Assembly (NCBI RefSeq): GCF_014199265.1
Contig: NZ_JACIJG010000008.1
Coordinates: forward strand, 62,001-126,000
Length of the DNA: 64,000 nt
From: Brucella daejeonensis
GTDB taxonomy: Bacteria > Pseudomonadota > Alphaproteobacteria > Rhizobiales > Rhizobiaceae
Direction: 5' to 3'
Position numbers and translations under genes: made by a program. This document shows, piece by piece, positions 3,342-41,902 of the stretch. Each line of letters begins with the position of its first letter. The first letter of the stretch is position 1. A model generated the notes under the pieces. It was not told where the DNA came from. It saw only the letters and a list, made by a program, of their open reading frames with translations, and did not search any database.

Positions 3342-3614
3342 ATGGCAGCAGTACCGCCCGGTCCACCGCTCGAAGGCCTGCGCAAGCAGCTTGAGAAAAG
3401 CCGCGCCCAGAAAAGCACGAAGAAAAGCCGTATGCCGCGCGACGGATTTGTCCGCGAGACGTTCAGCCTGCCCAGGCAGGCTGCGCGCGAAAAGGCGCGC
3501 GAATGGTTCGAGACCTTTCCAAAGGCCGCCTATTGGACGGAGATCGAAAGCTGGTGCGAGCGGCCTGACGATGTGATCGAATTCACCATGCGCCGTCTGG
3601 CGACGGCGGATTAG
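3342..3614 (+). CDS. Conserved small hypothetical protein
   Basis: The 90-residue product is not recognised as a named family. It starts with a Pro/Gly-rich tail, then a basic stretch (residues about 15-35, rich in Lys/Arg), then FVRETFSLPRQAAREKAREWFETFPKAA and a C-terminal acidic/aromatic segment. TTTGGAGG lies eight bases before the ATG, which favours this start over an upstream in-frame TTG. There is no signal peptide or membrane span. The basic middle could contact nucleic acid, but that is only a guess. It diverges from hemF and is followed by a hairpin terminator. Confidence 0.7.
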   Translation: MAAVPPGPPLEGLRKQLEKSRAQKSTKKSRMPRDGFVRETFSLPRQAAREKAREWFETFPKAAYWTEIESWCERPDDVIEFTMRRLATAD

Positions 3615-3673
3615 TGAATTGGTTTATTCTGACTGCGTAAATCAATGAAACAAGACTCAGATTAGGGCTTGGT

Positions 3674-3708
3674 AAAAGTGCCCGTCGACGAAATCGACGA
3701 GCACTTTT
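3674..3708. terminator. Bidirectional hairpin terminator
   Basis: AAAAGTGC-CCGTCGA pairs with TCGACGA-GCACTTTT around a short CGAAA loop, with T tracts on both strands. It separates the convergent small gene and omptin gene. Confidence 0.75.
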
Positions 3709-3794
3709 ATTTCTGAATCGTTATATCGTTACCCGTTCGAGCCTCCGTTGAGAGCCTTATTTTTCAACGCAAGCGAGGCAACCGAAACAGAGTT

Positions 3795-4739
3795 CTAGAA
3801 TTTTATTTTCAGGCCGGCGGATACGGTTGCCGCTTCGAATGAAGCGCCGGCGCTGTTCGGATTGAAGCCGCTGGTGCCATTGGAGCGATTGAAAATCTGG
3901 GTGTCGCCTCTCATTTTCAGGTGTTTTTCAAGCCCGGCCGTCACATAAAGACTTGATTGCTCGTTGAACGAATAAGAAGCGCTGGCCTGAATTTCAAAAA
4001 AAGGCGCACTTTCAAATGATTCCATGAAACGTAGATCGCGCAGCCAGTGATCGTCGATGTCTTTGCCCGAAACAGTAACGCCGGCACGCCCGAGAGCGCT
4101 GAACGACCACCGTTCCAGATTTGTGGTCCATTCGGAGCCAATGAAAAGAGCCGGTAAACGCTGCTCGTAGCTTATTCCCTTTCCATTGGGAAGTGTTCCT
4201 TCATCGTCACGAAAATCTCTGACACTGTAGGTGTAACTTCCACCATAGGCCGTCCATTTTACATTCGTATATTTAAAGCCACCATGTATATTCAGCGTAT
4301 TCCGGGAGTTGATTATGAAATTATGCCCCAGAGCGACGTCAAAACTGACATAGCGGTCCAGATTCGTTTCGCTTAGAGAGTGATGGGTCCAGTCGTCGAA
4401 ATCATACCCTCTGAAGCCTCGGACGTTGGATAACCAGTCATAGTCGTGCAAATTTCCACTTCCAAGCAAACCGACTTTCAAATTTCCCAGGAAGACAAGA
4501 TCGGAACCGATATCCGCCGTTAATTTTCCAGTCAGAACTGGCATCTGGGACTTCCAGAAGAGATGGCTGACCCTGTTGTCTCGTCCGTAGACTATTTCAC
4601 CGGCTTTAACCCAGGAATATCCTATTCCCCCGGAAAATTGGTAGTTTATGCCTTTATAATCTTGTTTTGAAAACTCCGAAGAGTTGGCATTATTACAGCT
4701 TGCAGCATACAGAAATAATAAAAATGTTATCTTTTTCAT
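3795..4739 (-). CDS. Omptin family outer-membrane aspartyl protease
   Basis: This 314-residue protein aligns by motif with the OmpT/Pla/PgtE family, ten-stranded outer-membrane barrels that cleave between basic residues. The catalytic pairs are present: Asp99 and Asp101 in HDYDW (OmpT Asp83/Asp85), and Asp229 and His231 in KDIDDHW (OmpT Asp210/His212). Other family features are TAYGGSYTYSVRDFRDD, LPNGKGISYEQR and a C-terminal aromatic residue (KIKF). The N-terminal 20 residues look like a signal peptide; the AASC at 12-15 is a poor lipobox. The gene and its upstream region are clearly more AT-rich than the neighbours, which suggests horizontal acquisition. A perfect dyad lies about 75 bases upstream of the start. 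Confidence 0.9.
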   Translation of the reverse strand: MKKITFLLFLYAASCNNANSSEFSKQDYKGINYQFSGGIGYSWVKAGEIVYGRDNRVSHLFWKSQMPVLTGKLTADIGSDLVFLGNLKVGLLGSGNLHDYDWLSNVRGFRGYDFDDWTHHSLSETNLDRYVSFDVALGHNFIINSRNTLNIHGGFKYTNVKWTAYGGSYTYSVRDFRDDEGTLPNGKGISYEQRLPALFIGSEWTTNLERWSFSALGRAGVTVSGKDIDDHWLRDLRFMESFESAPFFEIQASASYSFNEQSSLYVTAGLEKHLKMRGDTQIFNRSNGTSGFNPNSAGASFEAATVSAGLKIKF

Positions 4740-4813
4740 TCTCTACCCCGTTCAATTTAATTGAAATCTGCAACGAGGTATTTTTTATTCGAAATATAAT
4801 CAATCGCAGGATC

Positions 4814-4848
4814 GAGCAGGCAATTATAAAATATAAAATTGCCTGCTC
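4814..4848. promoter_or_regulatory. Perfect 12-bp inverted repeat upstream of the omptin gene
   Basis: GAGCAGGCAATT is followed after 11 AT-only bases by AATTGCCTGCTC. The element lies 75-109 bases before the omptin ATG. There is no T tract after the stem on the minus strand, so it does not look like a terminator for the upstream gene. An operator or structured leader is more likely. Confidence 0.55.
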
Positions 4849-4973
4849 AATATCTGAATCAAAAAGCGGCCGGCCGCAGCGAAATGGTGCGTTTCATGGA
4901 CCGGAACGCGGGCCAATTTCCATTGACGGACCGGCATGGCGACTTTTGGAACAGACACTCAACGCCGTGAATG

Positions 4974-6011
4974 TTACTTTGCCGCAGTCTGCGGAGCCTT
5001 TTCCCAAGCCTGCCAGTTCCTGACGATGCTGTCGGCATAGGCCTTGCCGACGCGATAGGCGTTGGCCGTGGCGAGCGGAAAGCCGCCGGAATTAGCGGCA
5101 AGCGATTCGCTGGCGGTCTGGTCCTTGCCCTGCCGGTCGAAATTCGACGCGGTGCGCAAAAGGGCGATGCGGCTGAAATCGAGCTTGCCCGCATCTGCGG
5201 CGCGTTTCAACGCCGTCAAAGTGGCGTTGTCTTCCATCTGCGAGGTGCAATAATCGGCCTTGCCCTCGGTCAGAAGTTTCGACCATTCGGCCATCGCTTC
5301 GCCGAGTTTCGCGCCATGCCAGTAGGTGTCGCCCGAAGCGGTGTCGCAGATCGTGACCTTCGGCGCGCCGGTCGCGGCTTCCTCGCTATAATGCTTGCGA
5401 TATTCCTTCGCCGCGTCGCTGTCGAGAAGTTCGACGCCCCTGGTTGTCGCCAGGGCATAGTCGGCGAGCTTGCCGTTCAGTTCGAAGACTTCCGTGCCCG
5501 CGGCCCATTTAGGCTTTTCGCCGGGTCTGGCGGTGCCAAGACCGAAAAAGTCCGTCGGCCAGCCTTCCGGCGCTTCGCGGATGTCGATGCGGTGGCTCAG
5601 ATTGGCGTCGATGGAATATTTCGCCCAGTGGGCCGAGCCGAGCGTGCCGTGTTCGGGATCGACACCGGCGATGCCCGCGATCAGGAAATAGCTGTGCGAG
5701 AGGTCGAGCCTGTCGCTCAGCGCCATGGCGGCAACCGAGCTTGCGGCATTGGCGAAACCCATCGCCGTCGTCATGTGGCAGAGTCCCTCGGACGTGCAGT
5801 CGATCTCCGGATATTCCGCGTTGAGGCCCGGCAGCCTGATCTTCTGCGTGAATTTTTCGCCTTCAAGCCATGGCTTGGCTTCCTCGCCGAACATGGTGAT
5901 GACCATCACCTTCGGCGTGATGCGCTGAGGCTCCCTGGCAAGGGCGGGGGCGCTTGCCAGAAGCGAAATGGCGGAAGCGGCGAGCGCGATAGTACGAATG
6001 GACAGGTTCAT
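4974..6011 (-). CDS. Purine nucleoside permease family protein (NUP), exported
   Basis: This 345-residue protein belongs to the NUP family (Pfam PF06516), named after a Candida purine nucleoside permease and related in fold to nucleoside phosphorylases. A signal peptide (residues 1-25, cleavage after APALA) implies a periplasmic location. Family signatures are VMVITMFGEEAKPWL near residues 35-49, CHMTTAMGFANAASS near 78-92, YFLIAGIAGVDPEHG (about 108-122) and RTASNFDRQ in the C-terminal third. A role in nucleoside binding or cleavage in the periplasm is plausible, but bacterial members are poorly characterised. It is followed by the AT-rich omptin region. Confidence 0.83.
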   Translation of the reverse strand: MNLSIRTIALAASAISLLASAPALAREPQRITPKVMVITMFGEEAKPWLEGEKFTQKIRLPGLNAEYPEIDCTSEGLCHMTTAMGFANAASSVAAMALSDRLDLSHSYFLIAGIAGVDPEHGTLGSAHWAKYSIDANLSHRIDIREAPEGWPTDFFGLGTARPGEKPKWAAGTEVFELNGKLADYALATTRGVELLDSDAAKEYRKHYSEEAATGAPKVTICDTASGDTYWHGAKLGEAMAEWSKLLTEGKADYCTSQMEDNATLTALKRAADAGKLDFSRIALLRTASNFDRQGKDQTASESLAANSGGFPLATANAYRVGKAYADSIVRNWQAWEKAPQTAAK

Positions 6012-35427: not shown

Positions 35428-36325
35428 AACGATTTCGGGAGACTATGCAGGCGCCGCCGGCCGCGCGCAGCTTCGCGCAGATGCCGTTTGCTTCGGCGCG
35501 GCTGTTCGCGCCGATCCGCACTGCGTAGATTCCGCGCCTGCCGATCGGTGTGCGTATGCGGCTGATGACCGGGGCGTGGCCTGCAAGCACCGTGCCGAAC
35601 TGCCTGCGCAGGCGGTTCCACTGGTTGACGGCGGCGCTGCGGCGAAAATTGCCCGCAACCTGTATCCCCCACGGCTTGGGCTTTACGCGGGACATGGGAA
35701 TGGTTGCGCTGCGCACGATGGGCAGTCTGCGGCAGGCCGCACCAAAATCGAGCTTGGGGTCGAGGGGACGATTCGCTACTTCTTTTCCGGCAGCGAAATC
35801 GTCGGCGGGCGCGCCGGTGATATCGAGCACATAGTCCTCGGTTTCGAGCGGCAGGAAGCCGCCGGACCGCATCCAGCCGGAGACGCGCCCCGCCCCGGCA
35901 TTATAGGCGGCGGCTGCTAGTCCCCAATTGCCGAATGCCTGTTTCAGATCGCGCAGGAAACTCGCCGAAGCCGGGATGGCCTGTTCGATGTCGAAGGGAT
36001 CGGATAGCCCGCGCTCCTTTGCCGTATAGGGCATGAACTGGGCAATGCCCTCTGCCCCGACAGGGCTGACGGCATTATGGTCGAAGCGGCTTTCCTTCCA
36101 GATTAGACGTGCGAAAAAGTCCCTGGGAATACCGTGGGTCTCGGCATTGTCGCCGATCAGCTCGCATATGCGGTTGATGGTGGGGGCTTTTGCGGCGGGC
36201 GGCAGGGGCGGGCCATAGACGGGCGGGTTCGGCCCGACTGCGGCCCATGCCATCTGGGGACCGGACGACAGCAAAAGAAGCTGCGAAACGATCAAGATTG
36301 CCATGCCTGTCCCGTAACGCTTCAT
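35426..36325 (-). CDS. Lytic transglycosylase with C-terminal SPOR-like domain
   Basis: The 299-residue exported protein has a signal peptide (about 1-29, ending AWAA), an SLT domain with catalytic Glu78 in IWKESRFDHNAVS, then GAEGIAQFMP and AAAYNAGAGRVSGW. The C-terminal 80 residues (PWGIQVAGNF... YAVRIGANSRAEAN...) look like a SPOR domain, which binds denuded septal peptidoglycan. It should cleave glycan strands in the periplasm. The stop codon is shared with the end of repeat copy C. Confidence 0.88.
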   Translation of the reverse strand: MKRYGTGMAILIVSQLLLLSSGPQMAWAAVGPNPPVYGPPLPPAAKAPTINRICELIGDNAETHGIPRDFFARLIWKESRFDHNAVSPVGAEGIAQFMPYTAKERGLSDPFDIEQAIPASASFLRDLKQAFGNWGLAAAAYNAGAGRVSGWMRSGGFLPLETEDYVLDITGAPADDFAAGKEVANRPLDPKLDFGAACRRLPIVRSATIPMSRVKPKPWGIQVAGNFRRSAAVNQWNRLRRQFGTVLAGHAPVISRIRTPIGRRGIYAVRIGANSRAEANGICAKLRAAGGACIVSRNR

Positions 36326-36469
36326 GCCACCTGTTCCGCCCACCCGTGCCGTCGCCAAGGTAACCTAACTTTGGGCATTGTCGATACGATGCTTGTGATT
36401 TTGCGCCTGGTAATCAGAATAAAACATAGCCCGGGCCGATTGAAACAAGGTTCTATAAGGTTATGCTTA
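36326..36469. other. Intergenic region after the transglycosylase start
   Basis: About 140 bases carry no gene; this is the probable transglycosylase promoter region. Confidence 0.4.
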
Positions 36470-36613
36470 AGAGCCTGTTCCAAAAGTCGTCATGAGCGGC
36501 TGCAAATGGTAATTTTCTGCGCTCCGGTGCTCATGTACCCAAAAGTACACTCCGCTCCTGTACTCGAAAATCACCATTTTCGCACGCACATGCCGCTTTT
36601 TGTTTCAGGCCCT
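36470..36613. repeat. Palindromic repeat, copy D
   Basis: It begins AGAGCCTGTTCCAAAAGTCG and ends TTTCAGGCCCT, and is nearly identical to copies A and C. It lies upstream of the Kazal lipoprotein gene, not beside a stop codon. Confidence 0.85.
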
Positions 36614-36630
36614 AAGACATAATAGGAAGG

Positions 36631-36667
36631 AGCGCCGACCCGATCGAACCAGATCGAAGCGCGCGCT
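36631..36667. repeat. Dispersed palindrome module (AGCGCC...GCGCGCT)
   Basis: AGCGCCGACCCGATCGAACC and AGATCGAAGCGCGCGCT resemble the module at 33238-33278 with the inner CGATC dyad partly kept. Confidence 0.45.
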
Positions 36668-36729
36668 GACAGGACCTGCCCTTACTATCCGCATTTCTAT
36701 CGGAAACCGGGTTCATCATGGAGAGGAAA

Positions 36730-37185
36730 ATGCCGTTACATTCATTGATAAGATGGAGTGTCGTCGCGGGTGCCCTGGTGCTGGCGGGCTGCGTCGCGGA
36801 GGGCGGGTCGGGCTATCGCCCGCCGGTAAAGCCGGGACCGTCGCAACCGCAAATGTGTCCGATGATCTACGCGCCGGTCTGCGCCGAGCGCGGCGGTTCG
36901 CGCAAGACTTTCGGCAATTCCTGCCAGGCGAGAGCGGACGGCTACCGGGTCGTTTCAAACGGCCAGTGCGGATCGCGACCCGGCTCCGGCTGGGGCGGAC
37001 CGGGTGTCGGGCCGGTGCGCCCGCCGCATCAGGGCAACAAGCCGGGCAGGCCGGGAGCGGGCGCCTGCACCCGCGAATATATGCCGGTCTGCGCACGGCG
37101 TGGAAACGACCGGCGCACCTTCGCCAATCGTTGCGAAGCGGAGCGCGCGGGTTACCGAATCACCAATGGCGGTCAGTGCCGCTGA
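36730..37185 (+). CDS. Lipoprotein with two Kazal-type inhibitor domains
   Basis: The 151-residue product has a signal peptide with lipobox LVLAGC (mature Cys near residue 21) and two Kazal-like domains of about 40 residues. Each has the CPMIYAPVC/CTREYMPVC start, a C near the middle and a C-terminal NGQC. Kazal domains block serine proteases with a convex loop. A Gly/Pro-rich linker (about 82-110) joins them. The start is uncertain: an ATG four codons upstream is also possible, and GGAGAGG lies between the two. It could protect the envelope against host or predator proteases, which is inference. Confidence 0.85.
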   Translation: MPLHSLIRWSVVAGALVLAGCVAEGGSGYRPPVKPGPSQPQMCPMIYAPVCAERGGSRKTFGNSCQARADGYRVVSNGQCGSRPGSGWGGPGVGPVRPPHQGNKPGRPGAGACTREYMPVCARRGNDRRTFANRCEAERAGYRITNGGQCR

Positions 37186-37218
37186 ACCGCATTCTGGTGA
37201 TTTGAGCTTTTTGGGATG

Positions 37219-37287
37219 AATCTATAGGAATAGATTTGGACATTTCGCCTCAAGGGCAGCCATGCAAATTTGCAAGAGGCGAGATGT
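37219..37287 (+). promoter_or_regulatory. Structured upstream element of the dCTP deaminase gene
   Basis: Two dyads are visible. AATCTA/TAGATT at 37219-37236 is a short stem. ACATTTCGCCTC (37240-37251) pairs with GAGGCGAGATGT (37276-37287) through 12 positions, one a G-U pair, with a 24-base loop that holds the perfect palindrome TGCAAATTTGCA. It is 44 bases before the deaminase ATG. It could be a leader, an operator or a small RNA. Confidence 0.5.
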
Positions 37288-37330
37288 TGGATAAGTATTG
37301 CAGCGAATTATGCAAAGTGCATGGTGATCT

Positions 37331-38860
37331 ATGATCTTTTTTGGGGGGGGCAAAGTGGGAGCAAAATCAATAAAGTATGCTGATAGTGTGCTCAGCGAAA
37401 ATGATGAAATAGAGGCGCGGAGCAGTGAGGAGGTAGCGCCTGCGGAATTACGTTTCACTCAAGAGTTGGTTTTCGGTATTGTTGCCCCGATTGGCTCTGG
37501 AGCTACGACGGTCGCGAAAATTCTCAAGCAAAAGATCGAAGAGAATTTTGGCTATAAAGCCGATGTTATTAAAATAAGCGAAATTATCAATGAGCGTGCA
37601 GAAAGTGTTGGTGAGAACTCTGTAGCTGCTAAAGCTCTTGATCGTGTTGAACGCCTTCAAAGTATGGGAAATAAACTTCGCGAAAAACATTCTAATGATG
37701 TTTTATCTATTCTCAGTATTGACAAAATAAATCGATCTCGTACGAATTCGGAAAATGGCGAAGACCGGCGCTTTTGTACGATTATAGATTCATTAAAGAA
37801 TCCAGAAGAGGTAGCTATTCTCAGGAAGGTATACGGTGATTTATTTTGGCTCGTCGGGGTCTTTTCTCCCGAGCACAAAAGGATAGCACGACTAGAGAAA
37901 CAAATATCAAGCTCCTCTTATTTGGCTAAAATTAAAGATGCTGACTATGACGAAGGTTCCAATTCGGGTCAATCTGTTCGAAAGACAATGAATTATGCGG
38001 ATGTTTTCTTTCGGAATGACGACGATAATTTGGATCGAATTGAAGGGTCCGCAGATCGTTTTTTGAACTTGGTGTTTGGTATCGGGGTGCAAACTCCAAC
38101 CCGCGAAGAATATGCTATGCAGGCTGCGTCCGGAGTTTCCTTAAACTCGGCGTGCCTCTCAAGGCAAGTGGGTGCAGTTATTGTTTCAGAAGCAGGGGAA
38201 ATCATTGGCCAGGGAGCTAATGATGTGCCTAAGTTTGGTGGCGGAGCCTATAGAGTTGATGATGGAAGCGGCGATCATCGTTGCCACAAATGGCAAGCAT
38301 GCCAGTGCTGGAACGATCATTATAAAGAGAAATTGTTCGATCAAATAGAAACGAAGCTTGCCCCTGATGGGAATGGTCGAATTAAGGACGATTTAAAGAA
38401 GACTGACGTTAAGAACCTGATCGAATTTTCAAGAGCGGTTCATGCTGAGATGGAGGCAATCATTTCGGTAGCAAGGCAGGGAAAAGGTGGCATCATTGGT
38501 TCCAAGCTTTTCACGACAACCTTTCCTTGTCACAGTTGCGCTCGTCATATTGTCGCTTCCGGGATACAGTCTGTAGTCTATATAGAGCCCTATCCCAAGA
38601 GTTTGGCTCTTACCTTACATTCTGACTCTATCACCACTAACCCGCAAGAAAGCGGAAAGGTTTCCTTCCTACAATATGAGGGAATTTCACCGTCAAGTTT
38701 CTCGCGGGTTTATGGATCAAAGCTTGAACGCAAAGAATCAGGTAAGATGAAGAAGAATGCCCCTAAAGAGGCACGTCCTTTAGCGTCACCGCCGTTAGAT
38801 TCGCTGGTATCACGTGAACAGCTTGTTCTGCTGTCGGTCTTAGAGAAGGAGGGAATGTAG
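37331..38860 (+). CDS. Anti-phage dCTP deaminase (AvcD family)
   Basis: The 509-residue protein has an N-terminal P-loop-like domain and a C-terminal deoxycytidylate deaminase. The N-terminal segment LVFGIVAPIGSGATTVAKIL (about 47-64) lacks the Walker A lysine. The deaminase zinc motifs are intact: His371-Ala-Glu373 (HAEMEAI) and PCHSC (Cys400, Cys403), followed by VYIEPYPKSLALTLH. A Cys/His cluster (DHRCHKWQACQCWNDH, about 315-330) precedes the active site. AvcD-type proteins deplete dCTP/dCMP after phage infection, and an RNA (AvcI) restrains the V. cholerae one. The gene is markedly AT-rich and sits between a Kazal lipoprotein and uvrB. A GTG start at 37355 is possible; a T6G8 tract lies between the two starts. 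Confidence 0.9.
   Translation: MIFFGGGKVGAKSIKYADSVLSENDEIEARSSEEVAPAELRFTQELVFGIVAPIGSGATTVAKILKQKIEENFGYKADVIKISEIINERAESVGENSVAAKALDRVERLQSMGNKLREKHSNDVLSILSIDKINRSRTNSENGEDRRFCTIIDSLKNPEEVAILRKVYGDLFWLVGVFSPEHKRIARLEKQISSSSYLAKIKDADYDEGSNSGQSVRKTMNYADVFFRNDDDNLDRIEGSADRFLNLVFGIGVQTPTREEYAMQAASGVSLNSACLSRQVGAVIVSEAGEIIGQGANDVPKFGGGAYRVDDGSGDHRCHKWQACQCWNDHYKEKLFDQIETKLAPDGNGRIKDDLKKTDVKNLIEFSRAVHAEMEAIISVARQGKGGIIGSKLFTTTFPCHSCARHIVASGIQSVVYIEPYPKSLALTLHSDSITTNPQESGKVSFLQYEGISPSSFSRVYGSKLERKESGKMKKNAPKEARPLASPPLDSLVSREQLVLLSVLEKEGM
37337..37350 (+). promoter_or_regulatory. T6G8 homopolymer tract at the deaminase start
   Basis: Six T and eight G lie three codons into the frame from ATG 37331 and just upstream of GTG 37355. 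Slippage of the G tract would shift the ATG frame; alternatively the G run may serve as the ribosome site for the GTG. Confidence 0.5.
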
Positions 38861-39036
38861 TGGCTCGAAGCGAAAGGCAGATGAGTTTTTTGCTGCCCAT
38901 AGGAGGGGCTGTACATTCGGCTAACTCACCGAAGGGGCCTAATCAAAATTCAAAAATGAATGATGAAGCAGCACAAAAACGGTATGAGCAGATTAAAAAA
39001 TCCCTTCAAAATAAGGGTTTGTTGAAATCCCAGTGA
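38860..39036 (+). CDS. Coupled micro-gene after the dCTP deaminase (58 residues)
   Basis: The GTG start overlaps the deaminase stop by one base, and GAGAAGGAGGG lies about seven bases upstream, a near-ideal ribosome site. The product begins VARSERQMSFLLPIGGAVHS, has a polar Asn/Ser centre and ends in a Lys-rich helix (AAQKRYEQIKKSLQNKGLL). An internal ATG at 38881 gives a 51-residue alternative. No family is recognised. The AT-rich base use matches the deaminase gene. It could be a partner, inhibitor or trigger of the deaminase, which is inference. Confidence 0.65.
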   Translation: MARSERQMSFLLPIGGAVHSANSPKGPNQNSKMNDEAAQKRYEQIKKSLQNKGLLKSQ

Positions 39037-39067
39037 GAGATTGCAACAATCTTTCGGGCATTGAACT

Positions 39068-41902
39068 TTAGCGCCCCGGTCGGCCCGTCTTGCCGGGGCG
39101 GCGCTTTTTGCGGGCGGTGTCCGCCGGGTCCTCGTAGGAGCCGATACCGGCGCGTTCGCGGCGGATCGGCGCTTCGCCGCCCGCCGGAATTTCGGTGCGC
39201 TTCACCGTCATCTCGTCCAGCGTATTCTTGCGGAACTTCGTCTCCGGCGCCGCAGGCAGGGGGCCTTCATGGCGCGGCTTCGCCATGTCGGTGCCCGGTC
39301 CCATATTGTCGAGCGTCGGCTTCTGGAACAGCGACGACCTGCCGCCCGCGTCATCGACGGTGCGGTGCGCCTTGCGCCCGGCATTGTGGCGGCCCTTGGT
39401 GCGCCCAGTGACGGGGCTTTCCAGTTCCACTTCGCGCGCCAGCGGATCGTCGGCAATGGCCAGTTCCGTCTCGCGCAGCCGCTTGATCTCGTCGCGCAGG
39501 CGCGCCGCCTTTTCGAAGTCGAGATCGGCGGCGGCGTCGCGCATCTGCTTTTCCAGATATTCCAGATGGGCGGTGAGATTGTTGCCCATCATCGCGCCCT
39601 CTTCGGCAAAGCCGGAAATATCGGCGCGAACATGGTCGCGTTCGTAGACCGAATCCAGAATGTCCGAAATATTCTTCTTCACCGAGGCCGGCGTGATGCC
39701 GTGCTCTTCATTATAGGCTTCCTGCTTCTCGCGGCGGCGACTGGTTTCGTCCATCGCGCGCTGCATCGAGCCGGTGATGTTGTCGGCGTAGAGAATGACC
39801 TTGCCGTCGACGTTACGCGCCGCACGGCCAATCGTCTGGATGAGTGAGGTTTCGGAACGCAGGAAACCTTCCTTGTCGGCGTCGAGGATGGCGACGAAAC
39901 CGCATTCGGGAATGTCGAGACCCTCGCGCAGCAGGTTGATGCCAACCAGCACGTCGAAAGCGCCAAGCCGCAAGTCGCGGATGATCTCGATGCGCTCCAG
40001 CGTGTCGATGTCGGAATGCATGTAGCGCACACGCACGCCTTGCTCGTGCAGATATTCGGTGAGGTCTTCGGCCATGCGCTTGGTCAGCACCGTGACCAGC
40101 GTGCGGTAGCCCTTCGTGGCCGTGTCGCGGATTTCGCCCAGCACGTCGTCGACCTGACTTTTGGCGGGACGGATTTCCACCGGCGGGTCGATCAGGCCGG
40201 TCGGGCGAATGACCTGTTCGGCAAAGACACCGCCCGCTTCTTCCATTTCCCAGCCGCCGGGCGTCGCCGAAACCGCGATGGTCTGCGGACGCATGGCGTC
40301 CCATTCCTCGAAGCGCAGCGGGCGGTTATCCATGCAGGACGGCAGGCGGAAGCCATATTCGGCCAGCGTGGCCTTGCGGCGGAAGTCGCCGCGATACATG
40401 CCGCCGATCTGTGGTACGGTGACATGGCTTTCATCGATGAAGACGAGGGCATTGTCGGGGATATATTCGAAAAGCGTTGGCGGCGGCTCGCCGGGATTGC
40501 GCCCGGTCAGATAGCGCGAATAGTTTTCGATGCCAGCGCAGGAGCCGGTGGCCTCCAGCATTTCGAGGTCGAAGGTCGTGCGCTGGTCGAGGCGCTGCGC
40601 TTCCAGCAACCGTCCGGCACGGGTCAGTTCGTCAAGGCGGTGCTTCAGCTCTTCCTTGATCGACTTGATCGCCTGATTGAGCGTCGGGCGCGGCGTGACA
40701 TAGTGCGAATTGGCGTAGATCTTGACCGATTTCAGGTCGCCGGTTTTCTGGCCGGTGAGCGGGTCGAATTCGGTGATGGTTTCGATCTCGTCGCCAAACA
40801 GCGAAATGCGCCAGGCCCGGTCCTCAAGGTGAGCCGGGAACAATTCGATCGTATCGCCGCGCACGCGGAACGAGCCGCGCACGAAATTGATGTCCTGCCG
40901 CTTGTATTGCTGCGCCACCAGATCGGCCAGAAGCTGGCGCTGGTCGAGCCGGTCGCCGATCTTCATCTCGAAGGTCATGGCGGTATAGGTCTCGACCGAG
41001 CCGATACCGTAGATGCACGACACGGAAGCGACGATGATCACATCGTCGCGTTCGAGCAGCGCGCGGGTGGCCGAGTGGCGCATCCGGTCGATCTGTTCGT
41101 TGATCGAGGATTCCTTCTCGATATAGGTGTCCGAGCGCGGCACATAGGCTTCGGGCTGGTAGTAGTCATAGTAGGAGACGAAATACTCGACCGCATTGTT
41201 CGGAAAGAAGCTCTTGAACTCGCCATAGAGCTGCGCCGCAAGCGTCTTGTTCGGCGCGAGGATGAGCGCCGGGCGCTGCGTCTGCTCGATCACCTTGGCC
41301 ATGGTGAAGGTCTTGCCCGAACCCGTCACGCCGAGAAGAACCTGCGTGCGGTCCTGATTTTCCAGCCCTTCCGCCAGATCGCGAATGGCCGTCGGCTGGT
41401 CACCGGACGGCTCGAAACTAGTTTCCATCTCGATGGCGATGCCGCCTTCGGATTTTTCGGGCCGGACCGGGCGATGAGGCGTCCAGAGTTCGCCGTTCTT
41501 GAACAGCGGATTGCCGGAAGCGATCAGGTCCGAGAGGGCCTGAACCGTCGCCGTCGCACCGGAGGGGTTGAGCCCGGCGGCGTCTTCGAGGCTGATGTCG
41601 AGGCCAGCAACCGGGTTAAGCCCGGCCGCCGCGCGTTCCTTCGCCGAAGCCGCGCCGCCCATGGAGGTGCCGCGTCCTGTGCGCGACGCTTCCTTGCTGC
41701 GCTCGGGTATCTTCTTTGGTGTCTTGGGGGCCGTTCGGGAAGCCTTGGCGCGGGGCTTTGCCGCCTCGTCACCGATTTCCTTCGCCCAGTCGGCGATCGA
41801 GCCGGAAAGCGGCGTGCCGGAAAATTCAGCCTGTGGCGCTTCACCGAAGCCGCCAGCCCTGTCGTGCGAATCCCGGGAGTGTTTGTCTTTTGAGGAAGCC
41901 AT
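39068..41902 (-). CDS. uvrB: Excinuclease ABC subunit B
   Basis: UvrB is the damage-verifying helicase-like core of nucleotide excision repair. The 944-residue product is longer than the usual 670: about 155 extra N-terminal residues (Ser/Ala/Lys-rich) and about 90 C-terminal residues. The core begins at [14 protein letters not shown] (about 163), with Walker A GVTGSGKT (191-198), [12 protein letters not shown] (beta-hairpin region), [19 protein letters not shown] and a C-terminal UVR motif. The 3' end faces the deaminase island. The N-terminal extension is common in this bacterial group. Confidence 0.95.

What the first reader, a model, noticed from the sequence alone, without database searches (positions are those of the whole stretch)
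37186..39060. AT-rich anti-phage dCTP deaminase island between a Kazal lipoprotein and uvrB
The sequence shows a two-domain protein with intact deaminase zinc motifs (HAE, PCHSC) and a P-loop-like N-terminus without lysine, in a block much more AT-rich than its neighbours. Established knowledge: AvcD-type dCTP deaminases defend against phages by depleting cytosine nucleotides. Inference: this is an acquired defence module at an intergenic insertion site in a housekeeping region.
Basis: partly seen in the sequence, partly recalled or inferred. Interest (0 to 1): 0.75.

Follow-up and report, generated by a model that had tools for sequence, protein, structure and literature searches.

The report
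Phage-defence deaminase with hidden small partner
A foreign-looking, AT-rich insert carries a known kind of phage-defence enzyme that destroys a DNA building block, plus an overlooked tiny gene whose relatives sit beside many such enzymes and often carry what looks like a docking tag for the DNA-replication clamp.

Summary
Window 37331-38860 (+) encodes an anti-phage dCTP deaminase (NCBIfam NF041025, 474 bits, cut-off 400; PADLOC dCTPase, 543 bits). It lies in the lowest-GC 1.5 kb of the window. One of 35 sampled genus genomes has it, in a Kazal-uvrB interval whose content varies: no gene in 8 of 29 others, an AT-rich 491-aa reverse-transcriptase-like ORF in 2 (the one scanned matches DRT2). 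The lysine-less P-loop is normal for the family.

Related small ORFs were recognised beside 63 of 95 deaminase genes (42 by profile model, 21 by eye or annotation): downstream in alpha- and betaproteobacteria and others, mostly upstream in gammaproteobacteria, where published work places the AvcI RNA antitoxin. Many downstream ones carry a Q-L-x-L-x-[LF] peptide like the sliding-clamp-binding motif (QLSLPL of Hda); the strict motif is in 15 of 179 unselected downstream ORFs and 7 of 7612 control ORFs. Twenty-one aligned members matched no Pfam, NCBIfam or PHROGs family convincingly.

Verdict: known defence enzyme, new two-gene variant. Clamp binding and a regulatory role are inferred, not shown.

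The parts
37355..38860 (+). anti-phage dCTP deaminase (AvcD-like), 501 aa from GTG 37355; 509 aa if ATG 37331 is used
   Evidence: NF041025 474 bits, cut-off 400; PADLOC dCTPase 543 bits; relatives start next to codon 9 of the longer ORF
38860..39036 (+). 58-aa companion protein, GTG start sharing one base with the deaminase stop (TAGTG), preceded by AAGGAGGG at 38846-38853; N-terminal QMSFLL, predicted C-terminal helix
   Evidence: sequence
37186..37354 (+). leader between the Kazal gene and the deaminase; can form a 13-pair stem but is not unusually stable (z = -1.44); single copy in the genome
36718..37185 (+). Kazal-like lipoprotein gene, left border of the variable interval
   Evidence: ORF; match in 31 of 35 genus genomes
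39068..41902 (-). uvrB, right border of the variable interval

Best explanation
The block is a horizontally acquired two-gene anti-phage module. The deaminase turns dCTP/dCMP into dUTP/dUMP during infection and starves phage DNA synthesis (published for homologues; inferred here). The 58-aa protein is probably translated from the same message, because its start overlaps the deaminase stop. It is a conserved partner with an N-terminal peptide that most likely docks on the host beta sliding clamp and a C-terminal helix that most likely binds the deaminase. Its most likely job is to hold the deaminase inactive at the host replisome and release it when a phage shuts off host gene expression or dismantles the host fork. 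Shown here: deaminase family, variable AT-rich location, small gene conserved beside the deaminase, coding-type change in relatives, motif enrichment, clade-wide linkage. Inferred: clamp binding (about 0.55), binding to the deaminase (about 0.6), inhibitory role (about 0.4).
For: Family calls. Variable site. Two profile models of small ORFs beside 85 deaminase genes match 22 and 23 of 471 neighbouring ORFs and 0 of 7612 control ORFs at E < 0.01; leave-one-out keeps 22 of 22 and 21 of 23. Motif QLxLx[LF]: 15 of 179 downstream and 2 of 292 upstream ORFs, not selected by profile, against 7 of 7612 controls; near against control Fisher p = 1.8e-16. The Q is invariant in 21 of 21 aligned small proteins. 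In 385 class genomes, 17 have the deaminase and 2 have a small-protein match, both beside a deaminase. Among loci not used for training, companions pass E < 0.01 in 5 (L152, L153, L170, L171, L172; L170's sequence is identical to a training one) and none of 1069 control ORFs does. dN/dS of small ORFs: 0.12 in one alpha pair, 0.11-0.62 in six gamma pairs. Hda's QLSLPL is required for clamp binding in vitro (PMC3836487, passages); consensus Q-L-x-L-F (PMC4549789, passages).
Against: No binding or activity data. The clamp motif is short, and the window copy (QMSFLL) departs from the strict consensus. No ORF of the gamma clade showed the strict motif; the two upstream hits are from an Acidobacteriia and a Flavobacteriaceae genome, and the latter is not the ORF I counted as companion. 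Where the system was studied, the neighbour is described as a non-coding RNA that binds and inhibits AvcD (PMC10511110, introduction). In gamma pairs the 150 bp upstream of the ORF are often about as conserved as the ORF itself (0.92 against 0.94, 0.78 against 0.75, 0.66 against 0.63), which an RNA role would also explain. In 32 of 95 loci no companion was recognised. The genome-wide small-protein search missed companions that local models found (L153), so '2 of 385' is a lower bound.
Confidence: 0.6

Rival explanations
1. Targeting subunit: the small protein tethers the active deaminase to the sliding clamp so that dCTP is destroyed at the fork, and it does not inhibit the enzyme.
For: Clamp-like motif plus predicted helix; [quoted passage not shown]
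Against: dCTP diffuses freely, so local depletion would gain little (inference); the studied homologues lower the cell's dC nucleotide pool (PMC10511110, passages).
Confidence: 0.25
2. The small protein is itself an effector that blocks the clamp, as the toxins SocB and RipA do, next to an independent deaminase.
For: Clamp-targeting toxins exist (PMC12795458, passages).
Against: Presence and position follow deaminase clades; the only 2 matches in 385 class genomes sit beside deaminases.
Confidence: 0.1
3. Ordinary dCTP deaminase with an RNA antitoxin in its leader; the downstream ORF is an unrelated hitchhiker.
For: AvcI is described as RNA (PMC10511110, introduction); the window leader can form a long stem.
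Against: A small ORF was recognised downstream in 29 of 29 rows of the clade that holds the window (21 by model, 8 by eye); leader fold z is only -1.44, and leaders of the two nearest relatives look unrelated by eye.
Confidence: 0.15

Closest known systems
AvcID (AvcD deaminase with AvcI RNA antitoxin) / anti-phage dCTP deaminase
   Same: Same deaminase family with the same zinc motifs and lysine-less P-loop domain; gamma relatives have a small ORF upstream, where AvcI is placed.
   Different: Here the companion is a downstream protein gene overlapping the deaminase stop, with a clamp-like motif; no RNA antitoxin could be recognised.
SocB and RipA, toxins that act on the sliding clamp (seen in passages of PMC12795458)
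   Same: Members of two-gene systems that touch the replication clamp.
   Different: No sequence comparison was made; here the enzyme is a nucleotide deaminase and the clamp-like motif is on the partner.
Hda / HdaA N-terminal clamp-binding peptide (PMC3836487)
   Same: N-terminal QLSLPL-type peptide.
   Different: Hda is a much larger protein (recalled: AAA+); the companion has a short tail and one predicted helix.

Membership tests
anti-phage dCTP deaminase (NF041025, PADLOC dCTPase) | score above the curated cut-off over the whole model | tested here: met
   474.3 bits against 400, model positions 1-437 of 437
anti-phage dCTP deaminase (NF041025, PADLOC dCTPase) | zinc-deaminase motifs HAE and PCxxC intact | tested here: met
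   H371, E373, C400, C403 invariant in 20 of 20
anti-phage dCTP deaminase (NF041025, PADLOC dCTPase) | N-terminal P-loop-type domain | tested here: met
   AF2 model pLDDT 78, pTM 0.77; Foldseek matches to adenylate-kinase-related 3lw7 and to dCMP deaminases
anti-phage dCTP deaminase (NF041025, PADLOC dCTPase) | deaminates dCTP and protects against phage | not testable with these tools
   needs assays
AvcID type III toxin-antitoxin | RNA antitoxin AvcI next to avcD | tested here: inconclusive
   no Rfam match reaches its gathering score in 36300-39400; leader fold z -1.44
beta-clamp-binding proteins | QLxLF or QLxLPL-type peptide in an unstructured segment | tested here: inconclusive
   window copy QMSFLL is near-consensus; strict motif enriched in relatives; residues 1-33 without secondary structure in a model of low overall confidence (pLDDT 73, pTM 0.36)
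beta-clamp-binding proteins | binds DnaN | not testable with these tools
   no complex prediction or assay available

The most novel reading that the evidence does not exclude
The published AvcI 'RNA antitoxin' region encodes a conserved small protein, and the dCTP-deaminase defence of the large clade is in general a protein pair whose small partner gauges the state of the host replisome through the sliding clamp. In gammaproteobacteria the gene lies upstream and in most others downstream of the deaminase. The reported minimum functional AvcI of about 171 bases (PMC10511110, passage) is close to the length of these ORFs (171 to 189 bases with stop in the seven annotated ones).
Probability: 0.3. 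Interest if true: 0.85.

Novelty: new variant of a known kind. Interest (0 to 1): 0.6.

Why it matters
It would turn a 'single enzyme' or 'enzyme plus RNA' defence into a protein-regulated pair, suggest how the enzyme senses infection (through the host replication clamp), and show that a studied antitoxin locus may have been read as RNA only. It also gives a short, testable peptide motif.

Tried and rejected
Rejected: nucleotide-salvage enzyme (ComEB 51 bits against a cut-off of 219, TadA 13 against 150). Rejected: the missing lysine as a sign of decay (no lysine in 20 of 20 relatives). Rejected for the window: integration that leaves a repeat of the uvrB end, since no such direct repeat was found, although one sister genome shows one. 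Rejected: deaminase C-terminal QPALF-type tails in L067-L069 as separate clamp motifs; as I read it they are another frame of the DNA that encodes the start of the small ORF. Searched for fusions of the small protein among 120 deaminase proteins (one is the window's own) and found no convincing one; model A did match an inner helix of a few deaminases weakly (best P0075, E 6.6e-4, residues 316-341), which I cannot explain. Rfam gave only matches below gathering score.

Results against my reading, and limits: model members were chosen by position and then by profile, so their E-values are flattering; leave-one-out, controls and new loci are the fair tests. Control ORFs are plus-strand ORFs more than 1.5 kb away plus every minus-strand ORF of the same loci. 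The tree is a quick FastTree with long branches flagged. In one search, of the seven best-scoring new loci, L169 had no companion, L154's was not significant (E 0.024 and 0.26) and L170 repeats a training sequence; 3 of the 29 new loci could not be examined for lack of the catalytic pattern. dN/dS values rest on 53-61 codons; most alpha pairs were saturated, the alpha value of 0.12 has dS 1.92, and the two extreme gamma values rest on 3 and 10 differences.

Full report
OBSERVATION. The ORF at 37331-38860 (+) is real and complete. It scores 474 bits against NCBIfam NF041025, anti-phage dCTP deaminase (cut-off 400), over the whole model, and 543 bits against PADLOC dCTPase; Pfam sees the cytidine/deoxycytidylate deaminase zinc region. 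The closest full-length relatives are 70-78% identical by local alignment; those with a name are from Rhizobium/Neorhizobium. Seven of eight start opposite codon 10, next to GTG 37355. An AlphaFold2 model (pLDDT 78, pTM 0.77) matches dCMP deaminases and adenylate-kinase-related P-loop proteins in the PDB. By sequence, the five PDB matches at E <= 0.001 are dCMP-type deaminases; none is of this two-domain family.

LOCATION. GC3 of the deaminase is 0.40 against 0.75-0.79 for its neighbours. A full-length copy occurs in 1 of 35 genus genomes. Of 100 genomes searched (own included), one other of the family has a 35%-identical one, and two further hits are partial and weak. The own genome has one copy. 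The Kazal gene was found in 31 of 35 genus genomes. I read the Kazal-uvrB interval in 29 of the 30 others (G013 was not fetched; the four genus genomes without a Kazal match were not examined). It is 22-198 bp without an ORF of 100 aa in 8. It holds a regulator plus oxidoreductase pair in 12 (one with an extra acetyltransferase-like gene), a regulator/oxidoreductase/dehydrogenase set in 4, a cupin-like gene in 1, and AT-rich single ORFs in 4: 491 aa in 2, 567 aa in 1, 164 aa in 1. These gene names are my reading of the sequences, not a scan. One of the two 491-aa proteins (L044) was scanned: PADLOC DRT2, 431 bits, and Pfam RVT_1. So this is a variable site that has taken up AT-rich genes more than once, at least two kinds of them defence-related.

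THE MISSED GENE. The deaminase stop (38858-38860) overlaps GTG 38860 of a 58-aa ORF that is preceded by AAGGAGGG. It matches a protein named hypothetical in the Brucella/Ochrobactrum group (91% identical). Downstream of distant deaminase genes there are ORFs of similar size and layout. Two profile models were grown from 5 and 7 seeds over 471 ORFs next to 85 deaminase genes. They matched 22 and 23 ORFs (42 loci in all, 3 of them by both models) at E < 0.01, against 0 of 7612 control ORFs of the same loci. Leave-one-out kept 22 of 22 and 21 of 23. A profile search of a very large protein set gave 67 proteins of 58-72 aa at E <= 0.01 among 173 candidates, two of them already in the query and none with a Pfam domain listed; I looked at 13 of the 67. 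Scans of the 21 aligned members gave nothing convincing in NCBIfam, Pfam or PHROGs (best E 0.021, 0.0075 and 0.062); PADLOC was tried for the window copy only and had none. The gamma-type small ORFs were not scanned against these libraries.

MOTIF. The N-terminal peptides read QLSLPL, QLYLPL, QLQLPF, QLSLPF, QLTLDF, QLRLSL and looser forms (QMSFLL in the window). Hda's QLSLPL is needed for clamp binding in vitro (PMC3836487, passages seen), and Q-L-x-L-F is the usual consensus (PMC4549789, passages seen). Counting all nearby ORFs without profile selection, the strict pattern QLxLx[LF] in the first 45 residues occurs in 15 of 179 downstream, 2 of 292 upstream and 7 of 7612 control ORFs. The Q and one leucine are the only invariant residues of 21 aligned small proteins. 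The predicted structure is a tail without secondary structure (1-33) and one helix (34-51) that is confident in its middle; overall confidence is low (pLDDT 73, pTM 0.36).

PHYLOGENY AND POSITION. On a FastTree of 95 deaminases, companions were recognised downstream in 29 of 29 rows of the alpha/betaproteobacterial clade that holds the window (21 by model, 8 by eye) and upstream in 18 of 18 rows of a clade of gammaproteobacteria plus one phage-labelled scaffold (9 by model, 9 by eye or annotation). None was recognised in a 23-row clade or in 9 further rows. Overall 63 of 95 rows have one. In the gamma clade the ORF often ends in Trp and is annotated as a hypothetical protein in seven of the records fetched, including a plasmid of E. 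coli ETEC H10407. Published work places the RNA AvcI upstream of avcD (PMC9455884, passage seen), describes it as non-coding (PMC10511110, introduction read) and names an ETEC system among those studied (passages); whether it is this strain's I do not know. The gamma ORFs show coding-type change: dN/dS 0.27, 0.27, 0.29, 0.41, 0.11 and 0.62 in six pairs, the last two on 3 and 10 differences. An alpha pair gives 0.12 at dS 1.92. The 150 bp upstream of the gamma ORFs are in three of six pairs about as conserved as the ORF, so an RNA function beside the protein is not excluded.

INDEPENDENT LOCI. In 385 class genomes, 17 carry a deaminase at E <= 1e-40 and 2 carry a small-protein match (the window genome and G324); both are beside the deaminase. 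The own genome has one small-protein match, this one. Of 398 phylum genomes, 14 had a deaminase at E <= 1e-60. Of the 29 deaminase loci of the two searches other than the window's own, 26 could be examined. Companions at E < 0.01 were found in L152, L153, L170 (same sequence as a training one), L171 and L172; L154 is borderline; L169 and the lower-scoring rest had none. Control ORFs at E < 0.01: 0 of 1069. So companions go with one large part of the deaminase family and not with the whole.

LITERATURE. In the listings of searches I saw no paper that links a small protein or the sliding clamp to dCTP deaminase. The two founding papers (Hsueh 2022, Tal 2022) are not held. My recollection that the avcI ORF was tested by changing its start codon is unverified and counts against the boldest reading.

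MECHANISM. From the anatomy I commit to a regulatory pair: coupled translation, a helix for the deaminase, and a peptide for the clamp. The steps shown and inferred are marked in the best explanation.

Noticed in passing
window 37343-37350: A run of eight G after six T lies between the ATG 37331 and GTG 37355 start candidates; if the ATG is used, slippage there would switch the deaminase on and off.
   Followed up: no
L054 12790-12819 and 13529-13558: In genome G024 the AT-rich insert at the same site is bordered by a 30-nt repeat (97% alike) of the uvrB 3' end, as site-specific integration could leave.
   Followed up: partly
L044 and L047, Kazal-uvrB interval: Two sister species carry an AT-rich 491-aa reverse-transcriptase-like ORF at the site that holds the deaminase in the window; L044's matches DRT2.
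   Followed up: partly
L049, Kazal-uvrB interval: AT-rich 567-aa ORF on the opposite strand with no match in Pfam or PADLOC at E 0.1.
   Followed up: no
L060 and L079: The deaminase tail runs in a shifted frame into the small ORF, suggesting a frameshift in the deaminase with the small ORF still readable.
   Followed up: no
window 37186-37354: The leader can form a stem of 13 pairs (about 37238-37290), single copy in the genome; role unknown.
   Followed up: partly
deaminase proteins such as P0075, residues 316-341: The helix of the small-protein model weakly matches an inner helix of some deaminases (E 6.6e-4 at best); possible mimicry or chance.
   Followed up: no
window near 3401-5100: A second low-GC stretch (about 0.47 over 1.5 kb), not examined.
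   Followed up: no
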